Source of the DNA: Circinella minor
Taxonomy: Eukaryota; Mucoromycota; Mucoromycetes; Mucorales; Lichtheimiaceae
Assembly (NCBI GenBank): GCA_016758965.1
Contig: JAEPRB010000381.1
Location: 1-12,695, forward strand
DNA length: 12,695 nucleotides
Reading direction: 5' to 3'
The notes under the pieces are model-generated. The model worked only from the letters and a program-made list of their open reading frames with translations, made no database searches and was not told where the DNA came from. Every line of letters starts with the position of its first letter. Position 1 is the stretch's first letter. Below, one piece after another: positions 431 to 12,595 of this stretch. The position numbers were made by a program, and so were the translations under genes.

Positions 431-956
431 AAAGCATCAGCAGCAGCATTAGCAATTCCCCTTCAATGAACAATGGTGAATTGGTATGACTGAATAGTAA
501 GTATCCAGTGGGCAAGGCGACTACGAGGCATTTTGATGGAAAGAATTGACTTGAGAGCAGCATGATCAGTGTAAATTGTAAAGTTGGCACCATATAGATA
601 AGGATAAAAATAGTTGAAGGACTAAACGATAGCAAGGCATTCTTGTTCAGTTGTGTTATAATTTTTCTCGGGAGCAGTGAGTGAGCAGCTGGCGAATGCA
701 ACAGGATGACCATTTTGGACAAGCACAGCACCTAATGCAAAGGTACTGGCATCTGTATGTAAATCATAAGGTAAATCGGGATCAGGAAAAGCAAGAGTTG
801 GTAATTTCATAATAGCTTGACATAATTTATCGAAAGCTAATTGGCGTGAGGAATCCCATATGAACTTGGTATCTTTGTGAAGGAGACGATGAAGTGGATG
901 TGCAGTTGATGACAAATGGACAAGAAAACAATGATAGAATGCACAAAAACCAAGGA
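431..956 (-). pseudogene. RNase H domain of the Gypsy pol
   Basis: The minus strand carries DLHTDASTFALGAVLVQNG, the first Asp motif of retrotransposon RNase H, then a segment ending TTEQECLAIV, then YTDHAAL with the later Asp, and finally an Ala-rich ADALSR ending. These are the standard landmarks of the Gypsy RNase H that degrades the RNA strand during reverse transcription. TAG at 624-622 falls exactly where the family has Trp (AIVW), so TGG changed to TAG by one G-to-A. TGA at 465-463 follows Val-His, where Arg or Lys is usual. No frameshift is visible across the domain. The frame is continuous with integrase and, once the 1075-1495 insert is discounted, with RT. Confidence 0.88.
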
Positions 957-1067
957 ATTTTTGGACATCGCGAACAGTTTTCAGGACAGGCCAATTTCGG
1001 ATTACTTCAACTTTCTTAGGGTCAGGGCGTATACCAGCAGATCCAACGAGAAAACCTAGGAACTTGA
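957..1067 (-). pseudogene. C-terminal part of the reverse transcriptase, cut off by the 1075-1495 insertion
   Basis: This minus-strand stretch reads VKFLGFLVGSAGIRPDPKKV and on to a segment with VQKFLGF. It is the thumb/connection region of Gypsy RT, where the family has V-x-(F/Y)-L-G followed by G-I-x-x-(D/N)-P-x-K. In an intact element it directly follows the K-C-x-(F/W)-F motif, which here lies about 430 bp away at 1503-1520. The gap is filled by an inserted element with a target duplication. Removing the 428-bp insertion plus one target copy brings the two parts into one frame. Confidence 0.88.
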
Positions 1068-1074
1068 CCTTGGA

Positions 1075-1495
1075 TAATAATCTTTAATAATAAAATAGAG
1101 AAATATATATACTATAAATAATAATATTTAATATAAATTTTAAGAATATTATATATATATTTTATGTTTTTATTTTTAATAATCAAATAATTTAATTTAA
1201 TTTTTATTATAATAATTTTTCTTTTTAATAATTATTTTTATTTTTATATAGATCAAAAAAATAATAATAGATAAAAAAATTATAATATAAATAAAAAAAT
1301 TTTTATAGATTCATAACTGGCGGAATGGTAATGAGCATTCCCCTCCTTAAACCTACGACGAAGGACGACGGTTTACTTGATTTTGAAATAAGAAGATGAT
1401 GATGGATGTGTTGGTCTAGTCATCATGTGTTCTCATTAACAACAATTGTTTTCTTATTATATATAATAATTATTCTATACTTAATAATTATTCTT
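1075..1495 (+). mobile_element. Short non-autonomous element A inside the RT gene, with a tRNA-like core
   Basis: A 421-bp AT-rich insert splits the RT gene. It is flanked by a near-perfect 7-bp duplication, CCTTGGA at 1068-1074 and CCTTAGA at 1496-1502. An alternative reading is a 3-bp TTA duplication (now TTG on the left, 1070-1072, and TTA at 1498-1500) around an element of 1073-1497. Its ends resemble each other weakly in inverted orientation, but AT richness makes this unreliable. About 245 bp from its left end lies a GC-rich core (1318-1380) shared in reverse orientation with element B. No coding capacity is seen. It has no GT-AG boundaries, so it is not an intron. MITE or SINE-like are both possible. 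Confidence 0.75.
1318..1380 (+). ncRNA. Putative structured, Pol III-type core of element A
   Basis: The core opens with TGGCGGAATGG (1318-1328), which fits the A-box consensus TRGYNNARNGG. An 18-nt run (1320-1337) is identical to element B. A stem follows: TAAACC (1348-1353) pairs with GGTTTA (1370-1375) around a 16-nt loop. A B box is not clean here: GGACGACGG (1363-1371) aligns with element B's GGATCGACGC but lacks one base. TTTT occurs at about 1381-1384, which would serve as a Pol III terminator. No acceptor stem of a true tRNA is visible, so this is not called a tRNA. Transcription is inferred, not shown. Confidence 0.45.
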
Positions 1496-1502
1496 CCTTA
1501 GA

Positions 1503-2269
1503 ACAGAACCATTGACACTTGGCAGGAGCAATTTTCAGATTATAATCAGCAAGGTGGCAGAGGACTTCATCGAGATCTTTATAACGTTCTTTAGGGGATT
1601 TGCTGTATATGATAATGTTATCTAAATATATGAGAACATTTTTTAAATCTTGGAGAACACCAGTCATGAATCTCATAAAGGAACTTGAACCATTTGAGAC
1701 ACCAAAGAGCAAACAGAGAAATTCGTAAAGGGCACCATCGGCAATGAAAGCAGTTTTGGCACAGTCATCGGGAAGGACAGGAATATGATAATAGCCAGAT
1801 TTTAAGTCGATGGTACTAAGGCAAGTGCTACCATGTAATTTATCATGCAAGGAGGTAATATTCGGCAAAGGAAACTTATCCTTGACTATCACTTTGTTGA
1901 GGTCCCAGTAGTTAATACAAAAACGAAGAGAACCATCTGGTTTCTGGATGAGGAGAACAGGAGAACACCAGGGACTTTGTGATGGTTGAATTACGTTTTT
2001 GGCGAGGAGTACTTAAACTTCTTCAGCAATTTTTTTATTTTCGGCAAGAGAACGGCGAAAATCATGAGAGACTACTGGAATAGCGTCACCCATATTGATG
2101 CGATGTTGAAAGGGTGAGTTATCAAGGGCTTGAGTAGGTGTAGTGGAGGTGAGGCTTGGGTATTGTTGAAGAATAGTGGTGACAATTTGTTCGTGGTTGG
2201 CATTGTTGTTGATGTGTGTGGTGAATTCTTTACTGATGCTATTCGTTTTAGGACGTAGAATAATATCTT
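1503..2269 (-). pseudogene. Reverse transcriptase core of the Gypsy pol (inactive)
   Basis: On the minus strand this shows the RT blocks in order: a Pro-Ser-x-Ser-Pro-Trp segment with VLLIQKPDGSLRFCINY, then DKFPLPNI, then STIDLKSGYYHIPV with the first catalytic Asp, a weakened LPFG block reading LLFGVSNGSSSF, and finally NVLIYLDNIIIYS. The catalytic Y-x-D-D has become YLDN (1628-1617): the second metal-binding Asp is Asn, a one-base G-to-A change. A TAA at 2015-2013 interrupts the frame after AEEV, where CAA would give Gln. The frame ends at KCQWFC, where element A is inserted. The normal role is copying element RNA into DNA; this copy cannot do so. Confidence 0.93.
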
Positions 2270-2494
2270 CAGTAATCAACCAATCCATTCCAAGTATGAC
2301 ATCTTCATTTTGGTGTTTGACAATATAAAAATTGGTGGTTGTTGCATTGTTGGAATATTATCAATAGTTGAGGCGAGCTATATTGCTGTGCTGGTGATTT
2401 GTGTGGACTGATTGCCATATCGAATAGGTTGTGGTAGGCAATGCATTGTTGGAATTTTTATATCGTTGATAATGTTGCATCGAATAGCACTTAG

Positions 2495-2517
2495 GAGAGT
2501 AATCAATAACAATTAAT
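2495..2517 (+). repeat. Left terminal inverted repeat of element B
   Basis: This pairs with 2815-2837 with four mismatches in 23 positions. The first eleven bases are GAGAGTAATCA here and GAAATTAATCA at the other end read inward. It also pairs imperfectly with about 2530-2560, giving a possible cruciform or hairpin at this end. Confidence 0.75.
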
Positions 2518-2560
2518 TTTACTATAAACAGTAAATTAATTTGATATTGTTATTACTCTG

Positions 2561-2625
2561 TCAAGCTAAGCGTCGATCCAGTTGGTCTAGCTTAGAGGAG
2601 GGAAGTGCTCATTACCATTCCGCTA
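2561..2625 (-). ncRNA. Putative structured, Pol III-type core of element B
   Basis: Read on the minus strand it starts with TAGCGGAATGG (2625-2615), an exact fit to the A-box consensus TRGYNNARNGG. The 18 nt at 2623-2606 are identical to element A. GATCGACGC (2578-2570) fits the B-box consensus GWTCRANNC, 47 nt downstream of the A box start, a normal tRNA-gene spacing. A 6-bp stem CTAAGC (2595-2590) with GCTTAG (2571-2566) encloses an 18-nt loop. Three of its six pairs differ from element A, with both sides changed so that pairing is kept. The D-arm-like part lacks full pairing, and no acceptor stem or T-run terminator is seen, so this is tRNA-like, not a tRNA. Confidence 0.5.
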
Positions 2626-2814
2626 CTTTTATTTTTGATTGATCATAATAATAAATAATTATTATATTAATTAAAAAATTTAAAAAAAACTAAAAAATAA
2701 TTATTTTATAAATTATAAATTAATTTAAAAATAAAAAAATGATATAAATATTTTTCTAATATTCATTATATTTTTGAGCTATAGTCTATTTATTCAATAA
2801 TAGATTACTTATTT

Positions 2815-2837
2815 ATTAATTACTATTGATTAATTTC
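2815..2837 (-). repeat. Right terminal inverted repeat of element B
   Basis: This is the inverted partner of 2495-2517, read inward as GAAATTAATCAATAG and onward. It abuts the right CTTAG duplication at 2838-2842. Confidence 0.75.
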
Positions 2838-2960
2838 CTTAGTGTTGATCCAGTGTCAATTAAAGTGCGTCGTAATAAATTATCATGTGGAATTGTCATG
2901 GTAACATGGAAACGAAGTGGTGTCGGTTTGTTATTTTGTTACTTTTGTATAGGTTGATTT

Positions 2961-4652
2961 TCTTAAGCATTATTTATGTGTTGATTTTCTAATGGTATTT
3001 TTTCAAGCAGATGTTCGAAAATGTTGTAATTGCCATTGTTTTCATCAGAATTCTCAAGTTGCTGGTTATTATTTTGTTGGGAACGGTGGCAGTTAGTAGC
3101 AATATGACCATGTTGGCCACATGCAAAACATCTACGAGTTTCGCATCCTGTATTGTTATTATGGCGATTATTACTTGGATAATTGCTGTGATAATTGTTT
3201 CAGTTTCTATTGTTGTTTAATCGATTGTTGTTGAACTGATTATTGTTGTTGTGTCGATTATTGTAGTTGTTGCATTTTTGGTGATTATTGTGGCGAAAAC
3301 GATGTTGATGATTGTAGTTGTTGTCCATATCGTCGATTGTTATTCTATTGATTGTTTTGGTTGGCTAGCATTAGTTCTGTGTTGTTGGTGATAGTCGTAT
3401 TGTTAGTGCTGTTAGGTGCTGCTGTCATATAAGTTGGTAATGTCTGTCCTGATCGAGTCAATGCATATTCAACTTCAATACAAATATTGATAGCTTCTTA
3501 TAGATTCGATGGACCATGCATGTAGATAGCTTCTTGTAACTCTCTGTGAACTCGGTCACTAAAATAGTCAAGTTGTAGAGCATCACTAAAGATTTTGGCA
3601 CAGTGAAACAGTTCAACAAACTTGGGTGCGAATTGGCTCATTGGTGTTGCTCCTTGACATAGGAGTTTCAGTTCGGCAAGAGCAGCACGACTTGGTTGAG
3701 TTCCTCCTCCAAAATGTTGGAGAAACTGTTGTTTAAAGAGTTCAAAGTTATGTTGAACATCTGGGACAAGACCAGAAAACCATTTGATAGCTGGGCCTTC
3801 CAGAACAGCATTCAATTTATCCGAACGTTCAGATTTTGAAAAACCTAAAAATTCACAAAGTTGTGTGTATTTTTCAACCCATTGTTATGCTGCAGCAGCA
3901 GTACCATTACTGAAAGGAGGTAGTTTAGTGCGGCGGCGTCGTTCGATATAGGTATGGTCGATGGAGCGTCAGTTAATTTCAGGAATGGGGTTGGTAACGG
4001 CAGTAGTGCTTGTTGTTGTATATGTAATTGTAAAGTTAGAATTGTTAGAGTTGGTAGCATCACCTTCGGTTGGTACTGAAGCAATGGGGACAGAATTTAA
4101 AATGAGGTTCATGATATCGTGCGTTAATGGTAGGTCTCTACAGACGTCAATGATAGACCAGTGGTAATTGAGAATAAGGGTTTGTAATAAGTTTCGGGCA
4201 TTATTATGGAGCCATTGTAGTTGAGATGCGATCCATTGGCGTTCACCTTCACGTTTAGAGTCAAGATCAGTAATTTCGTTGAGCGCATTCTGGGCCAAGG
4301 TACAGCGTTAATTAATAACGGGAAGGAGAAGAGATCGGTTAACTTGAGGTATCATTGGCAACGTCTGTTCAATAGTGGCGGCTCGACCGGTGAGTGTGTT
4401 GCTATGATCAAGGCGAAGTTGACGTCCCTCAGTCAGGTAAAAAACAAGATCAGTGTAGCGGTTCTTGGCAGCTTGGAAACCATAACGGAGAGTATCTTCA
4501 TTTGGTATGGAGTCAGAGGCAATATGAGACAAAGGCTCAGCAGCAGCAAAGGCAGATAGAATATCATTAGGTGCACGGGCACCAAAATTAGAACCAAAAG
4601 TAGGAGGTTGAGCCACAGGAGCAGCGGTAGGTGTAGCAGGAGTAAGGGACAT
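2961..4652 (-). pseudogene. Gag (nucleocapsid) gene of the Gypsy element, broken
   Basis: The ATG at 4652-4650 starts a Thr/Ala/Pro-rich N-terminus (MSLTPATPTAAPVAQ). The retrotransposon gag core follows at about 3815-3500, with NAVLEGPAIKWFSGL, an FEKFKQQF-like helix seen here as FELFKQQFLQHFG, and PMSQFAPKFVELFHCA. This is the capsid-type domain that packages element RNA. From 4652 to 3498 it is one frame interrupted only by stops: TAA 4310-4308, TGA 3971-3969, TAA 3887-3885, TAA 3500-3498. An Asn/Gln-rich stretch at about 3200-3400 contains a frameshift, then a CCHC knuckle appears at 3130-3089. The frame then runs on into protease. The ATG lies about 40 nt past the primer-binding site, as expected. 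Confidence 0.88.
3089..3130 (-). other. CCHC zinc knuckle of Gag
   Basis: The minus strand reads CFACGQHGHIATNC, exactly C-x2-C-x4-H-x4-C, the nucleocapsid RNA-binding knuckle. All four zinc ligands are intact. It is embedded in an Asn/Gln-rich tract and lies in the same frame as the protease Asp-Thr-Gly downstream. Confidence 0.92.
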
Positions 4653-4962: not shown

Positions 4963-7900
4963 CCATTATATGCTGATAACTGTGGCGGGGATGATGATCA
5001 TATGACAGATGAAAATTTTGTAACAGATGACAACTACAATGATCATAGTGATAATGAAGATGAAGTTGATCAAGAAAATGTACCAGAACAATAACACATC
5101 GTTGTTGGGGCAACGGACCAGGTGAATAGTGATGAAGAAGATGGTATTTATATTGATCCTTGGGATAAAGAACCTCCACTCTGTACCGACGTTCCTTTTG
5201 AAGAAACAGTCCAGGGAACTGCCCAACTTGACAAACACCACCAAAAGAGCTTTGAATTATACAGCTGGGTTCAGGATCATAATGTCAGCTGTGATGCCTA
5301 TACATCATTATTATCAATGTTGAACGAATAGATTGTGGATGATAGTTTCGGTAAGAATTGTTTGTTTCAGGTTCGCCAGTTCACTTTACATAAGATGTTA
5401 TCTAACTTACTTGAAAAATATATAGATAAGAAACCATTGTTTTCACCAGCAAAAAGTGAAGCACGTTTAGAAAAAATGTTCAACCTGCAAGAAACAAAGT
5501 ACCGCATTTGTCCAGGCCATTGTCGACTCTTCCCATTAACTTCGATGGATGGTTGCTCTTGTGGAAAAGAACAATTTTTTTCCAATGGAAAACCAATTGC
5601 ATCCATGTCATACTTCCCGCTCAGGCGACAGCTCGCATATATAATTTCAGACCAGGATATCCGCACGCCTATCCTAGATACAGTAACGTTGCAACCGTTA
5701 GAATCAGGAGAAGAAGTATTGACAGATATAACGGATGGTACCATATACAGAACACTTAAAGCCCACCTTTTCCAAAACCAAACAGAAACGAACTTATCTC
5801 TTGTGGTATCTTTATTTGTTGATGGTTTCATGCCATTTAAGGGAAGTGGAAACTCGAGAATGACCATCAAACATCTTGTATTATTATGTCTATCACCAAA
5901 GGAAAGGTAATTATCAGCGATTAGAAACTCTATATAAAAAGTATATCATATTTATCAACCCTATACATATTTTTAATTAGATACAAAATGAAACACATGA
6001 TGCAAGTGGCGATTATTCCCGCAGATCACACAGGCGACATATACAGTTTTCTTATGCCACTTTTGAGAGAGCTATTTGTACTTGAAGATGCTGGCATGAA
6101 TGTATATTGTGAAAGTGGCCCGATTCATGTCAAAGTGCATTTGCTATTAGCTTCAGGGGACCTCATAGGGTGTCAGGAAATTATGCACCATACCAAGAAT
6201 AATTCTGAATATGGATGTAGGCAATGCTGCATCAAAACAACCTGCGAAATTAGTCCTACCGGTAAAGGACATGGACGTTACCCATTACTATCCTCGTACA
6301 ATAGCCATGTCTACTCCAAGGTCAGATGATAAATTTATACAAGGAATGCCAGTAAGTCGAAAAGAACATTAATGAATAATAAACCTTTTTAATCTACTGA
6401 CCTTTTTTGCTTGTATTGTAATATAGGATTATGGTGTCAAGAAGACAACCATATTCGGTCAATTGAAATCTTTCCATGGGTATAGCTTTTTTGGGTAGGA
6501 CGAAATGCACTGTATTGGAGCTAATGTGACAAGAAAGCTGTGGGACATGATCACCAGCAAAGCAGCAATTTTCCAACTAATGTGAACTCCACCATTAAAC
6601 TTCGCCATGGACCATGTTCAGATATACAGTACTGTAGGTAGGGAGATTGTTGATTCAGGATCAACACTACTATCTAGAATATTTGAAGGATCATTTAGAG
6701 GTATGTATAAATTTATTTTCTTTATATATATATATATCTGTATGATAAAATAATTTATCAATATTTATTAATATACCAATTTCATTCATAGACGTCTCCA
6801 AAAAAGCAGGTCTAATGTGTTCTGTTGACTGGATCATGTTTCTTCAAATAATGATTCCAACACTTGTATTCGAACAACTAGTAGAGGAGTATGGTCAAAA
6901 TGCTGAACAAGTACAAGCCCTCATGTCTCTTGTAATAGGATGTACCTTGTCCCTACAATGGGAGATTGACAGAGAAAACCATTCTAATATAAAAAAGTAA
7001 GTATAACCTTTCTATTTTGTTTATTTAACTTCGATAAAAAAAAGTAGTCAATACTTTAATTATATATTTTAGACACTTGAATCTCTAGCACCTACACATG
7101 AAAAATAATATGGACCATAATTTATATATGGTGAATTTCCATCTACTTCGTCACTTCACTGAAATTATCGAAAAACTGGCCTCTTTGATAGGTTATTGTA
7201 CTCGATCGGCAGAGCGCACAATTGGTTAGTATATTATTACTAAATATCCCATTGCTACACTATTGAATATTTACTTACCATCTTTTTGCACAATATAGGA
7301 TTTTTTAAATGTCACATAAAACTATGTGTCTGACCTGGAGCCAACGCTACGAAAATCATCAAATGTCAACTACTCGTATGTAGCTTTAAGCGTGTGTATA
7401 AGAGTGATAATTCTATAGGAGAGCTCCCAGTGAACCAGTATGTCATACCTGATCAAGATGACGAATATGAAGAAATGATGCTATGGGATTACAATATAGC
7501 AAGGGTTACTGATTATAATGCAAAATATAATCTTATTGAATACTTAACAGACTATTGGCATTTCTAGTTTTATGATGACCAGGTACTTCATAGTGTACTA
7601 GACAACAACATCCGTATTGGAAAACGATTCCTCAAAGATGATTTGATATTCCGTTGCCAAGAATATCCCAGCACAGCCAAAAAACTAGAAACATTAGCTA
7701 AACTAATATTGCCAACTACATCTGGTTCAGGAATGTTCTTTGGAGACATATTGCTATTTTTTACACACACTTATAAGGGTATGAATTTATAGAAACAAAT
7801 GCAATACATACAGATATATAAATAGATTACTTACCTTTTTTATAATTTTAGGCATTGAGCATCCCCTATGCTTGCTGATAGTTTATGGCAACATTAGGAT

Positions 7901-8120
7901 GACTGAATATGGTACATGAGGAACAAAAAAGGGCGTCCCATTTGGTTTTTAGACGAGCAGCAATACAAGTAATTCTGACAAGCTTTATGTAACACACGCG
8001 AACAATATAAAGACCAATGCTGGATTGCTTAAATTCTCATTGCATGATGGCCAGTATTATTTGGTTTTCCCTGAAATAATACTAGGTGACATTCAGCTGG
8101 GTGATATCAACAATATTTAG
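4963..8120 (+). pseudogene. Tnp2/CACTA-type transposase, seven exons, interrupted by stops
   Basis: Exons: 4963-5906, 5981-6351, 6427-6700, 6792-6996, 7073-7224, 7299-7778, 7852-8120. All six introns are GT-AG and 73-91 bp, and phases join throughout. The N-terminus is very acidic (DDDH, NDHSDNEDE). The core matches the Transposase_21 (Tnp2) family: SLFVDGFMPFKGSGN holds the first Asp, then DHTGDIYSFLMPLLRELFVL, then SGDLIGCQEI and YGCRQCC. Further on come KSFHGYSFFG, DEMHCIGANV and SAERTIG. The protein would cut and move its own DNA. Nine stops interrupt it: 5092, 5329, 6496, 6583, 7086 (a Trp position), 7331, 7565, 7917, 7950. There is one frameshift, near 6319. The 5' end is missing because the LTR abuts the reading frame. 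Confidence 0.87.
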
Positions 8121-8955: not shown

Positions 8956-9333
8956 CTCTATATTCTATTATCTACCTTTGTGGCATTTTCCTGTATGGTT
9001 ATATCTACCTATATGGTTATATTATTCTTCGTGTTTATATTATCTATCATTTAAATATTCTTCTCTCTTTGTGATGGGTACCGAGTATTTTGTGCAGATT
9101 CCATATATTTGGTCGCTCGCCTAAATAAGGAAAAGCAGTCCATGGGTATATTGTACATAGTCAATAATAATTATATACTTATTGTCAAGTTTCCTTACTA
9201 CTTTTTTATAAAATTATATAGAAATAACAATAGAAAATATTATTAAGCATAGAAACTCTTTTATAAATAGTTTTATAACCCATAAAAATGACATAATGTA
9301 TAAACAAATAAAACCTACACGAAATCTGAGAAT
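8956..9333. other. Gene-free AT-rich stretch
   Basis: I see no protein-like reading frame or RNA gene. The only less AT-rich piece is at about 9075-9150 (with GGTACC, GGTCGCTCGCC and CCATGG), and it shows no recognisable feature. Confidence 0.4.
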
Positions 9334-9460
9334 CTACACAAAAAATTTCTGCACAAAAATAATTTTATAACAAAACTACACAAAAAATTCCTGCACAATA
9401 ATAATTTTATAATAAAACTACACAAAAAATTCCTGCACAAAAATAATTATACACAAAAAA
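9334..9460. repeat. Three tandem copies of a 42-bp unit
   Basis: Copies start at 9334, 9376 and 9418, each opening with CTACACAAAAAATT(T/C)CTGC. The period is exactly 42 bp. A reduced piece, ACTGCACAAAAAGTT, follows near 9470. CTGCACAAAA and CTACACAAAA are half-unit variants of each other, so the 42-mer probably arose from a roughly 20-bp unit. No coding sense is seen. Confidence 0.85.
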
Positions 9461-9859
9461 AAAGTCATAACTGCACAAAAAGTTTAAAACTATGTACTTT
9501 ATAAAAAATGTCGATTATCTGCCCTGTTGAATGAATAAACCAGAATGTTCTTTTAACAGTGATAGCGCATACACGCAGAAGTTGTTAGAATATTTTTTAT
9601 GGTGAACTGATATCAAGCAAAAATAAAAACAAAATTAATAAGGGCAAATAATAGAATAAAAGATATCATAAATGATAATGATCATGATAGGAACAATACA
9701 TATCAATAGTGATGATAATGATGATGATTATTATGATTGTGATTATGATTATGATGTAATTGCCAACTGTAGAGAAATTATTATGAATCGCAAGAGGTAT
9801 TGAAAAAGGAAATAATGTCACCATGTATTACGTATTTTAAAAATAAAATAACCAAAAAT
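9461..9859. other. Gene-free stretch with GAT/ATT triplet run
   Basis: A GATGATAATGATGATG-like microsatellite occupies about 9700-9755. The remainder is AT-rich with no supported gene or RNA. Confidence 0.45.
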
Positions 9860-11188: not shown

Positions 11189-12595
11189 ATGTCTGAATAC
11201 GTGCATGCTATTGCAGAATTTGACCTTCAACAACAAATTCTTGAATGACGACGTATAAATAGACGCGAGCATAGACCATTTAATTTGAATGACTATACAG
11301 ATGAAAGATGTGAATCTAACTTTCGATTTGATAAAACTCAAGTATGTGATGTATATATAAACAAGATGAATTTTTTGTATGGTTCCATATTTAGTTTCTG
11401 ATGAATAATATGTACTGTATAGCTTTGTACTATTATCCATGCAATGGAGTTGCCTAGTCATTTTGTTTTCCATGCAGAAGACCCTGATCACCATTTCCAG
11501 GTTTCTACGGAAGAAGTAATGGCGATTTGCTTACGTCGTTTAGCATATCCTGCCCGTCTTGAGGACCTGGGTCATATGTTTGGGTGAACAGCACCTGCTT
11601 TGAGTGTTATTTTTAATGGTATGATAGAGTATCTGTTTAATAAATACAAGTCAACATTGAACTTTGCTGAATCACAGTTTACCCGTGACCGTCTCCAATT
11701 ATTTGCTGATGCAGTTGCTCAAAAAGGTATTATGTTATTATAGTAAGACAAATAAATATAATTAACACTGCAAAAAAAATACTCATAGTATACTTGTTTT
11801 GTTACAATATAGGATCTCCTATCAGTAATGTTGTTGGGTTTATTGATGGTACAGTTAGAGGAATATGTCGACCTGTCGTAAATCAAGAAGTTGTGTATAA
11901 TGGGCATAAGGTAATAACTCGTTTATATCATTTTGTATGTACTTGCATCACCATAGTGTTAATATTTCTGATATGTGATATAAACGTTGACATTATGTAT
12001 AGCACAAGCATGCACTGAAATACCAGGCAATGACTACCCCTGATGGTATTACTGCTCATTTGTTTGGTCCTATTTGTGGCTCGCATCATGATGGATTCAT
12101 GTTAACTGAATCTAAACTTCTTGAAACTCTCAAAGATAGATTAAACTTTGATGACGGTTGCCACTTTGTCCTGTATGGTGACCCAGCATACCGCCGTCAC
12201 CAGAATTTAGTCGCTCCATTTGTTGTTCCAGAAAGTAATTATTTGTGATACAGCATACTTAGTATATTATTATTACTAACAAAAATGTTTCACTTTTATG
12301 TATAGATGATAGGACAAGTCGCGAGTCCCTGCACAATCAAAAAATGTCGAAGGTTAGAGTGGCCGTTGAATGGGAATTTGGAAGAACTGTAAATCTATTT
12401 GCTTTCTTAGATTACTACAAAAATCAGAAAGTCTGGCTTAGCCCTGTTGGTGCGTATTACTTTGTTGGTGTTCTTTTCAAAAACATTAAAATCTGTTTGG
12501 GTGGAGGTCAAGCCTGCAAATATTTTGGTATTGAGCCACCAACAATCTATGAATATCTAGAACATGGTAATCGTGTATTTCGTGAACAGCAATAA
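11189..12595 (+). pseudogene. PIF/Harbinger DDE transposase (DDE_Tnp_4 type), five exons, two in-frame TGA
   Basis: Exons: 11189-11341, 11423-11726, 11813-11910, 12003-12234, 12306-12595. All introns are GT-AG, 71-92 bp, and phases join to give 358 codons plus stop. That is close to the usual size of Harbinger transposases. The catalytic triad reads D164 in VVGFIDGTVRG, D245 in VLYGDPAYRRH and E284 in RVAVEWEFGR. Other landmarks are NGHKHKHALKYQ, SHHDGFMLTES and LRRLAYPARLEDLGHMFG. The enzyme moves its element into TWA target sites, usually with a Myb-like partner, which I do not see here. TGA at 11246 and TGA at 11585 break it. The second falls where the family has Arg (FGR), so CGA to TGA is likely. 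There are no frameshifts, suggesting recent loss. Confidence 0.9.

What the first reader, a model, noticed from the sequence alone, without database searches (positions are those of the whole stretch)
1318..2625. Two short mobile elements share a structured core with compensatory stem changes
Elements A (core 1318-1380, plus) and B (core 2625-2561, minus) differ almost everywhere but share the run GCGGAATGGTAATGAGCA, then CA-TTCCC-TCCT-like sequence, then a 6-bp stem, then CTTGA. The stem is TAAACC/GGTTTA in A and CTAAGC/GCTTAG in B. At three of six positions the base pair is different (T-A to C-G, A-T to T-A, C-G to G-C) with both sides changed. Three double changes that all keep pairing are unlikely by chance and point to selection on an RNA (or cruciform DNA) structure in a mobile element. 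I do not recognise this RNA family. Transcription and function are inferred.
Basis: partly seen in the sequence, partly recalled or inferred. Interest (0 to 1): 0.78.

Follow-up and report, generated by a model that had tools for sequence, protein, structure and literature searches.

The report
Jumping DNA with conserved folding cores
Two short non-coding jumping DNA pieces in a fungal genome belong to a modular set of about fifty related pieces that carry short conserved stretches and small hairpins whose two sides tend to change together, so a folded shape seems to be kept, although whether the fold is RNA or DNA, and what it does, is not shown.

Summary
Elements A (1072-1496) and B (2494-2838) are short non-coding inserts in a Ty3/gypsy pol region, each flanked by a 3-bp duplication. 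Both carry the 18-nt run and a 6-bp stem (S1) with three double changes. The run has 12 exact genomic copies (reversed control 0). In 18 aligned copies five of six S1 pairs have double changes and 93% of S1 cells pair; the covariation score beats 500/500 shuffles, though two cruder measures do not. In a home-made tree-aware null two S1 pairs rank top, but one non-pair ties with them. The core belongs to a wider MITE-like assemblage: 31 of 36 inspected elements have exact 3-bp duplications. Related families carry further hairpins; for helix P5, 14 distinct loci found by loop sequence alone have 79 of 84 arm positions complementary (re-dealt maximum 73). No Rfam match above cut-off, no tRNA. RNA is not proven: shuffle-corrected folding shows no strand preference, and G-U pairs are rare in S1 and P5. 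Template switching or a DNA hairpin remain possible. No mobilising partner was found. Verdict: a real, probably undescribed, structured MITE assemblage; RNA is the leading but unproven reading.

The parts
1072..1496 (+). Element A, 425-bp non-coding insert; short inverted ends GGATAATAATC / GAAGAATAAT
   Evidence: Matches of most copies run to about these ends; 3-bp duplication CTT
1069..1071 (.). Target duplication CTT, left of A
1497..1499 (.). Target duplication CTT, right of A
1320..1337 (+). 18-nt conserved run in A
   Evidence: 12 exact copies in the genome
1348..1353 (+). S1 5' arm TAAACC of A
1370..1375 (+). S1 3' arm GGTTTA of A
1376..1380 (+). CTTGA, conserved after S1
1395..1427 (+). 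Second hairpin H2 of the A family, arms GATGATGA 1395-1402 / TCATCATG 1420-1427 (outermost position G-G, not paired); other copies carry double changes at three pairs
2494..2838 (-). Element B, 345-bp non-coding insert; inverted ends GGAAATTAATCAATAG / GGAGAGTAATCAATAA
   Evidence: Two near full-length copies; duplication TTA/TAA
2491..2493 (.). Target duplication TTA, left of B
2839..2841 (.). Target duplication TTA, right of B
2606..2623 (-). 18-nt conserved run in B
2590..2595 (-). S1 5' arm CTAAGC of B
2566..2571 (-). S1 3' arm GCTTAG of B
2561..2565 (-). CTTGA after S1 in B
622..2357 (-). Degenerate Ty3/gypsy pol region that hosts both inserts
   Evidence: RNase H domains in 622-1080; reverse-transcriptase-like ORF 1488-2012 (by eye)

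Best explanation
A and B are MITE-like non-autonomous DNA transposons with 3-bp target duplications. They belong to an assemblage of families that carry conserved foldable modules: in A and B the X core (GGANTGGTAAKGAG, CCCTC, stem S1, CTTGA), in others hairpins P3-P4-P5. Shown: the elements, the target duplications, covariation in S1 and P5, and unpaired stretches conserved where arm sequences change. Inferred: source elements are under selection to keep a fold, and that fold most likely forms in an RNA (Pol II transcript or read-through) bound by an element or host protein that helps the element persist. The mobilising enzyme is inferred to be PIF/Harbinger-like. Not shown: transcription, binding or function.
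For: S1 covariation. A second hairpin in the A family has double changes at three pairs in seven rows. P5 arms lie outside the search pattern, yet 79 of 84 positions in 14 distinct loci are complementary against a re-dealt mean of 64.3 (maximum 73, 0/5000); in hand register 99 of 104 cells in 13 distinct arm pairs, re-dealt mean 64.4, maximum 85, with one pair using all four Watson-Crick types. Unpaired stretches are conserved between families with different ends: 15 of 19 P5 loci have TRTGGTT upstream, outside the pattern. P3 starts about 27 nt from the 5' end of one element (L095) and about 410 nt in another (L083), so the module is not a fixed-distance end site. 31 of 36 elements have exact 3-bp duplications.
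Against: Shuffle-corrected folding favours neither strand (plus lower in 16 of 37, p 0.32; plus-strand z in the A family between +0.33 and -1.82). G-U pairs are rare: P5 1 of 104 cells, with 1 A-C; S1 3 G-U and 4 A-C, H2 0 and 2. P3 and P4 lean to G-U, each 13 to 2, but mostly at recurring places, and P4 was registered by hand in 6 rows. Two of five measures do not exceed shuffles. One non-pair ties with the best S1 pairs. The P5 tests are not tree-aware. No Rfam match above cut-off and no tRNA, no expression data, no transposase with matching ends among those read.
Confidence: 0.45

Rival explanations
1. The double changes come from mutation: template switching within short inverted repeats copies one arm onto the other, keeping the hairpins perfect without selection for a fold.
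For: The mechanism is described for RNA hairpins (PMC8794818; abstract and start of introduction seen). P5 arms are almost perfectly Watson-Crick with hardly any G-U. No strand preference.
Against: It does not explain conserved unpaired stretches between families with different ends, nor why the same short hairpins persist at the same places in the module.
Confidence: 0.25
2. The fold acts as DNA: cruciform or single-strand hairpins are recognised by the transposase or by a replication or repair factor.
For: No strand preference, few G-U in S1, H2 and P5, and a module inside a DNA transposon.
Against: Distance of the module from the 5' end varies from about 27 to about 410 nt; arms of 6-8 bp, often AT-rich, make weak cruciforms (general knowledge); a recognition site would be expected to keep arm sequence, which changes.
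Confidence: 0.17
3. The module is a guide or scaffold RNA for an RNA-guided nuclease of the TnpB/Fanzor type carried on non-autonomous elements.
For: The genome encodes a protein over the Pfam cut-off for the Cas12f1-like TNB domain (C441, 42.6 bits), which I read as Fanzor-like.
Against: No X-core word in the two 9-kb stretches around the two matches, and the 3' flank of the first gene shows no such module by eye; the module does not sit at the element end.
Confidence: 0.04
4. A tRNA-derived SINE or other Pol III gene.
For: The start of the X core, TRGCGGAATGGT, resembles an A box (recalled consensus).
Against: ARAGORN finds no tRNA in 10 loci, no Rfam match to the module, T runs inside the P5 module, and 3-bp duplications with inverted ends.
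Confidence: 0.03

Closest known systems
Tourist-like MITEs of the PIF/Harbinger superfamily
   Same: Short, no ORF, inverted ends, 3-bp target duplication; Harbinger-type transposases abound here (58 DDE_Tnp_4 matches).
   Different: Targets are mixed triplets, only 2 of 31 exact duplications being TWA, though 30 of 31 have A or T in the centre; two apparently full-length Harbinger elements have different ends; conserved covarying hairpins inside.
SINE V domain carried by a DNA transposon (MER6; PMC6887750, search listing and start of abstract only)
   Same: A conserved domain shared between families of non-autonomous elements.
   Different: There the domain comes from SINEs; here the module shows covarying stems and matches no known RNA.
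Mitochondrial double-hairpin elements of fungi (recalled; one search listed no such paper)
   Same: Small mobile pieces whose hairpin stems change in step.
   Different: Here in contigs with nuclear genes and transposons, longer, with target duplications.
Fanzor/TnpB guide RNA elements (recalled)
   Same: Structured RNA encoded in a mobile element.
   Different: No link to the Fanzor-like genes of this genome was found.

Membership tests
MITE (non-autonomous DNA transposon) | Short element without coding capacity, flanked by a target duplication | tested here: met
   36 elements of 261-866 bp, exact 3-bp duplication in 31. Ends were chosen by eye with the duplication in view.
MITE (non-autonomous DNA transposon) | Terminal inverted repeats | tested here: met
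   Clear in A, B, L056, C362 and others, but short or weak in several families, such as the C171/C119/C37 type and L018 (by eye)
PIF/Harbinger MITE | TWA target site | tested here: not met
   2 of 31 exact duplications are TWA; 30 of 31 have A/T in the centre
PIF/Harbinger MITE | Autonomous partner with the same ends | tested here: inconclusive
   End-pattern search: 46 places, control 16; two new ones read, no transposase recognised. Of 58 transposase matches six places were fetched and two have clear ends, which differ
Rfam RNA family | Covariance-model match over the curated cut-off | tested here: not met
   Window: only snoR28 at 9714, E 0.07, below cut-off. 18 loci: four hits, all on an inverted repeat of L071 outside the module (best E 2.2e-05), all below cut-off
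tRNA-derived SINE | tRNA-related Pol III head | tested here: not met
   ARAGORN, 0 genes in 10 loci; a degenerate tRNA could be missed
Fanzor guide RNA | Module at the 3' end of a nuclease-encoding element | tested here: not met
   No X-core word in the stretches around the C441 and C102 matches
Conserved structured RNA | Helices with covariation above phylogeny | tested here: inconclusive
   S1: two pairs above all null pairs, but one non-pair too; P5 tested by re-dealing flanks, not by a tree
Conserved structured RNA | Transcribed | not testable with these tools
   No expression data

The most novel reading that the evidence does not exclude
A MITE assemblage whose spread depends on a structured RNA that it encodes: an RNA that binds a cut-and-paste transposase or its messenger and favours the element that made it, exchanged as a module between MITE families with different ends.
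Probability: 0.12. Interest if true: 0.88.

Novelty: new variant of a known kind. Interest (0 to 1): 0.58.

Why it matters
MITEs are usually seen as two ends with filler. Here internal modules with covarying hairpins and conserved unpaired stretches recur in families with different ends, which suggests that the inside of such an element can be under selection. If the fold is RNA, a cut-and-paste element would carry its own functional RNA. If it is mutational, the set is a natural test of how far template switching can imitate RNA covariation.

Tried and rejected
Rfam and ARAGORN gave nothing in the module. Fanzor guide RNA: genes found, no X-core word beside them. Folding-strand test: raw energies favour the plus strand in 31 of 37 rows (5 minus, 1 tie), but shuffle-corrected z-scores do not (16 of 37), so the raw result was dropped as composition. 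Harbinger partner: two related elements (83% identical) have ends GGGGGTTTCAAAAATGAA, unlike the MITE ends. An interrupted A-like copy (L090) looked at first like a longer element. Splicing of the module (GTAAGT ... CAG) was considered by eye and rejected because several families lack the CAG. Viral collection: no exact match to two module patterns. Papers: no report of such elements turned up (listings and starts of abstracts); terms were looked for inside PMC5640933 (none found), PMC8216456 and PMC11234323 (passages); one search was uninformative; led to PMC8794818.

Rows dropped before counts: A1 holds 18 rows; four C-family rows, L090 and four D rows were added only (27 rows, gaps placed by hand, the length-variable loop removed). 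The D rows lack the 18-nt run; L058, which shares only the tail, was left out. One search used 13 distinct arm pairs registered by hand, L093 by eye (its row did not fit the check pattern of that script). P2, P3 and P4 were registered by hand in 5, 10 and 6 rows and are not claimed as tested. One search examined all 19 loop-pattern loci, 14 of them distinct, and took the best register in both data and control.

Full report
What is in the window. Both cores lie inside two short non-coding inserts in a degenerate Ty3/gypsy pol region on the minus strand; 622-1080 matches RNase H domains, and the ORF 1488-2012 reads like reverse transcriptase by eye. Element A spans 1072-1496 with the duplication CTT; element B spans 2494-2838 with the duplication TTA.

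Copies. The 18-nt run occurs 12 times exactly in the 46.6-Mb genome (0 in the reversed control) and 46 times with up to three mismatches (control 15), several of these by chance. A shorter word GGAMTGGTAAKGAG occurs 26 times (control 1). Whole-element searches gave 17 matches for A and 15 for B, the query itself and partial or AT-rich matches included. By my count about 53 copies of all families were read. The host looks like a fungus near the Mucorales; this rests on one aspartic protease gene piece, 46-48% identical to Absidia repens proteins and 70-88% to unnamed environmental ones. No tool gave a species name.

Elements. For 36 elements of several families I compared the triplets beside the ends: 31 of 36 are exact 3-bp duplications, 30 of those 31 with A or T in the centre. 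The ends were chosen by eye from shared termini with the duplication in view, so the count is somewhat favoured. End sequences differ between families (GGAGAATAATC, GGGAATTAATC, GGGAGATAACTAG, GAGAAACAATTC, GAGTAACGTT), and in some the two ends are only weakly inverted, yet modules are shared. This looks like MITE families with a common or related transposase. PIF/Harbinger transposases are frequent here (58 DDE_Tnp_4 matches, one in the window at 11994-12221), but the two apparently full-length ones read have other ends, so the partner is unknown.

The X module. Alignment A1 (18 rows) gives for S1 13 C-G and 5 U-A at pair 1; 6 U-A, 5 A-U and 7 mismatches at pair 2; 11 A-U and 5 U-A at pair 3 (2 gaps); 10 G-C and 8 A-U at pair 4; 10 G-C, 7 C-G and 1 U-A at pair 5; pair 6 never varies. 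The 14-pair structure tested, S1 plus a folding-suggested helix, scores 0.345 against 0.153 in shuffles, and sliding the 3' partner destroys it; the numbers of pairs with double changes and of pair types do not exceed the shuffles. In a tree-aware null of my own with 27 rows and 40 simulations, two S1 pairs are at the top with no null pair as high, a third has E 0.2 and a fourth 1.7; one mostly non-complementary column pair (34-51) also exceeds all null pairs. So S1 is supported, with some linkage noise. The A family has a second hairpin downstream with double changes at three pairs among seven rows. A D group (L054, L055, L056, L059) lacks the 18-nt run but keeps the S1 region and CTTGA.

The P module. 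Families around L021, L023, L026, L027, L074, L083-L087 and L093 have the word GGANTGGTAAKGAG or a near form, followed by further hairpins; families L067-L073 and L076, L077, L092, L094-L098 have the later hairpins P3-P5 without it. Searching the genome with the P5 loop alone (ATAAAAAA, 2-12 bases, TTTTTGTCTTNGNA) gives 19 places and none in the reversed control. I read all 19. The arms lie outside that pattern: in 14 distinct loci 79 of 84 positions are complementary, against 64.3 +/- 2.6 when downstream flanks are re-dealt (maximum 73, 0 of 5000). In hand register over 13 distinct arm pairs, 99 of 104 cells are Watson-Crick (re-dealt mean 64.4, maximum 85) and pair 2 shows C-G, T-A, G-C and A-T. 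The stretch TRTGGTT, also outside the pattern, is upstream in 15 of 19. These tests keep no tree, so relatedness could inflate them.

RNA or DNA. I tried to decide this and could not. Raw folding energies favour the plus strand in 31 of 37 rows; after dinucleotide shuffles the plus strand is lower in 16 of 37 (p 0.32). G-U against A-C: S1 3 and 4, H2 0 and 2; P2 1 and 0, P3 13 and 2, P4 13 and 2, the last two mostly at recurring places; P5 1 and 1. An RNA gene would usually show more G-U in S1 and P5. Template switching can make double changes without selection (PMC8794818). What it does not explain is the conservation of unpaired stretches between families. A DNA fold read by a protein could explain both, but the module sits at very different distances from the 5' end (about 27 nt in L095, about 410 nt in L083).

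Conclusion. The finding is real and wider than reported: a MITE assemblage with internal foldable modules in a Mucorales-like fungus. I know of no described match, and none turned up in the paper searches listed. The mechanism I favour is a structured RNA encoded by the element that helps it persist or move, at 0.45; mutation-driven palindrome upkeep has 0.25 and a DNA hairpin 0.17.

Noticed in passing
L076, L077, L092 (C156, C82, C21): The same P5-type insert sits at the same place in three copies of one gene (by eye), so the gene seems to have multiplied with the insert inside.
   Followed up: no
L065 (C441, about 846-3401) and L066 (C102): Fanzor-like nuclease genes; the first passes the Pfam cut-off for the Cas12f1-like TNB domain, the second match does not. 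Downstream of the first is a hairpin CTTTCTG ctat CAGAAAG.
   Followed up: partly
window 5332-8100: Broken gene that reads by eye like a CACTA-type transposase; two pieces of it gave no convincing Pfam match.
   Followed up: partly
window 11710-12592: Degenerate PIF/Harbinger transposase pieces (DDE_Tnp_4 at 11994-12221).
   Followed up: partly
L088 and L023 (C407:12365-20397): A MITE seems split by about 7.5 kb whose ends read GAAAAACTGCCCA / TGGGCAGTTTTT (by eye).
   Followed up: no
L103 (C513): Near-identical stretches with ends GAGATACGTCC / GGACGTATCTC occur twice, either side of a DDE_Tnp_4 gene (by eye).
   Followed up: no
L023, L026, L027 (also L083, L084 in near form): The GGANTGGTAAKGAG word occurs twice in tandem, 24 nt apart, where related copies have a hairpin instead.
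   Followed up: partly
window 9331-9459: Three tandem repeats 42 nt apart.
   Followed up: no
L089 (C381 after 12695): The window ends at a run of about 1.5 kb of N, an assembly gap or a masked stretch.
   Followed up: no
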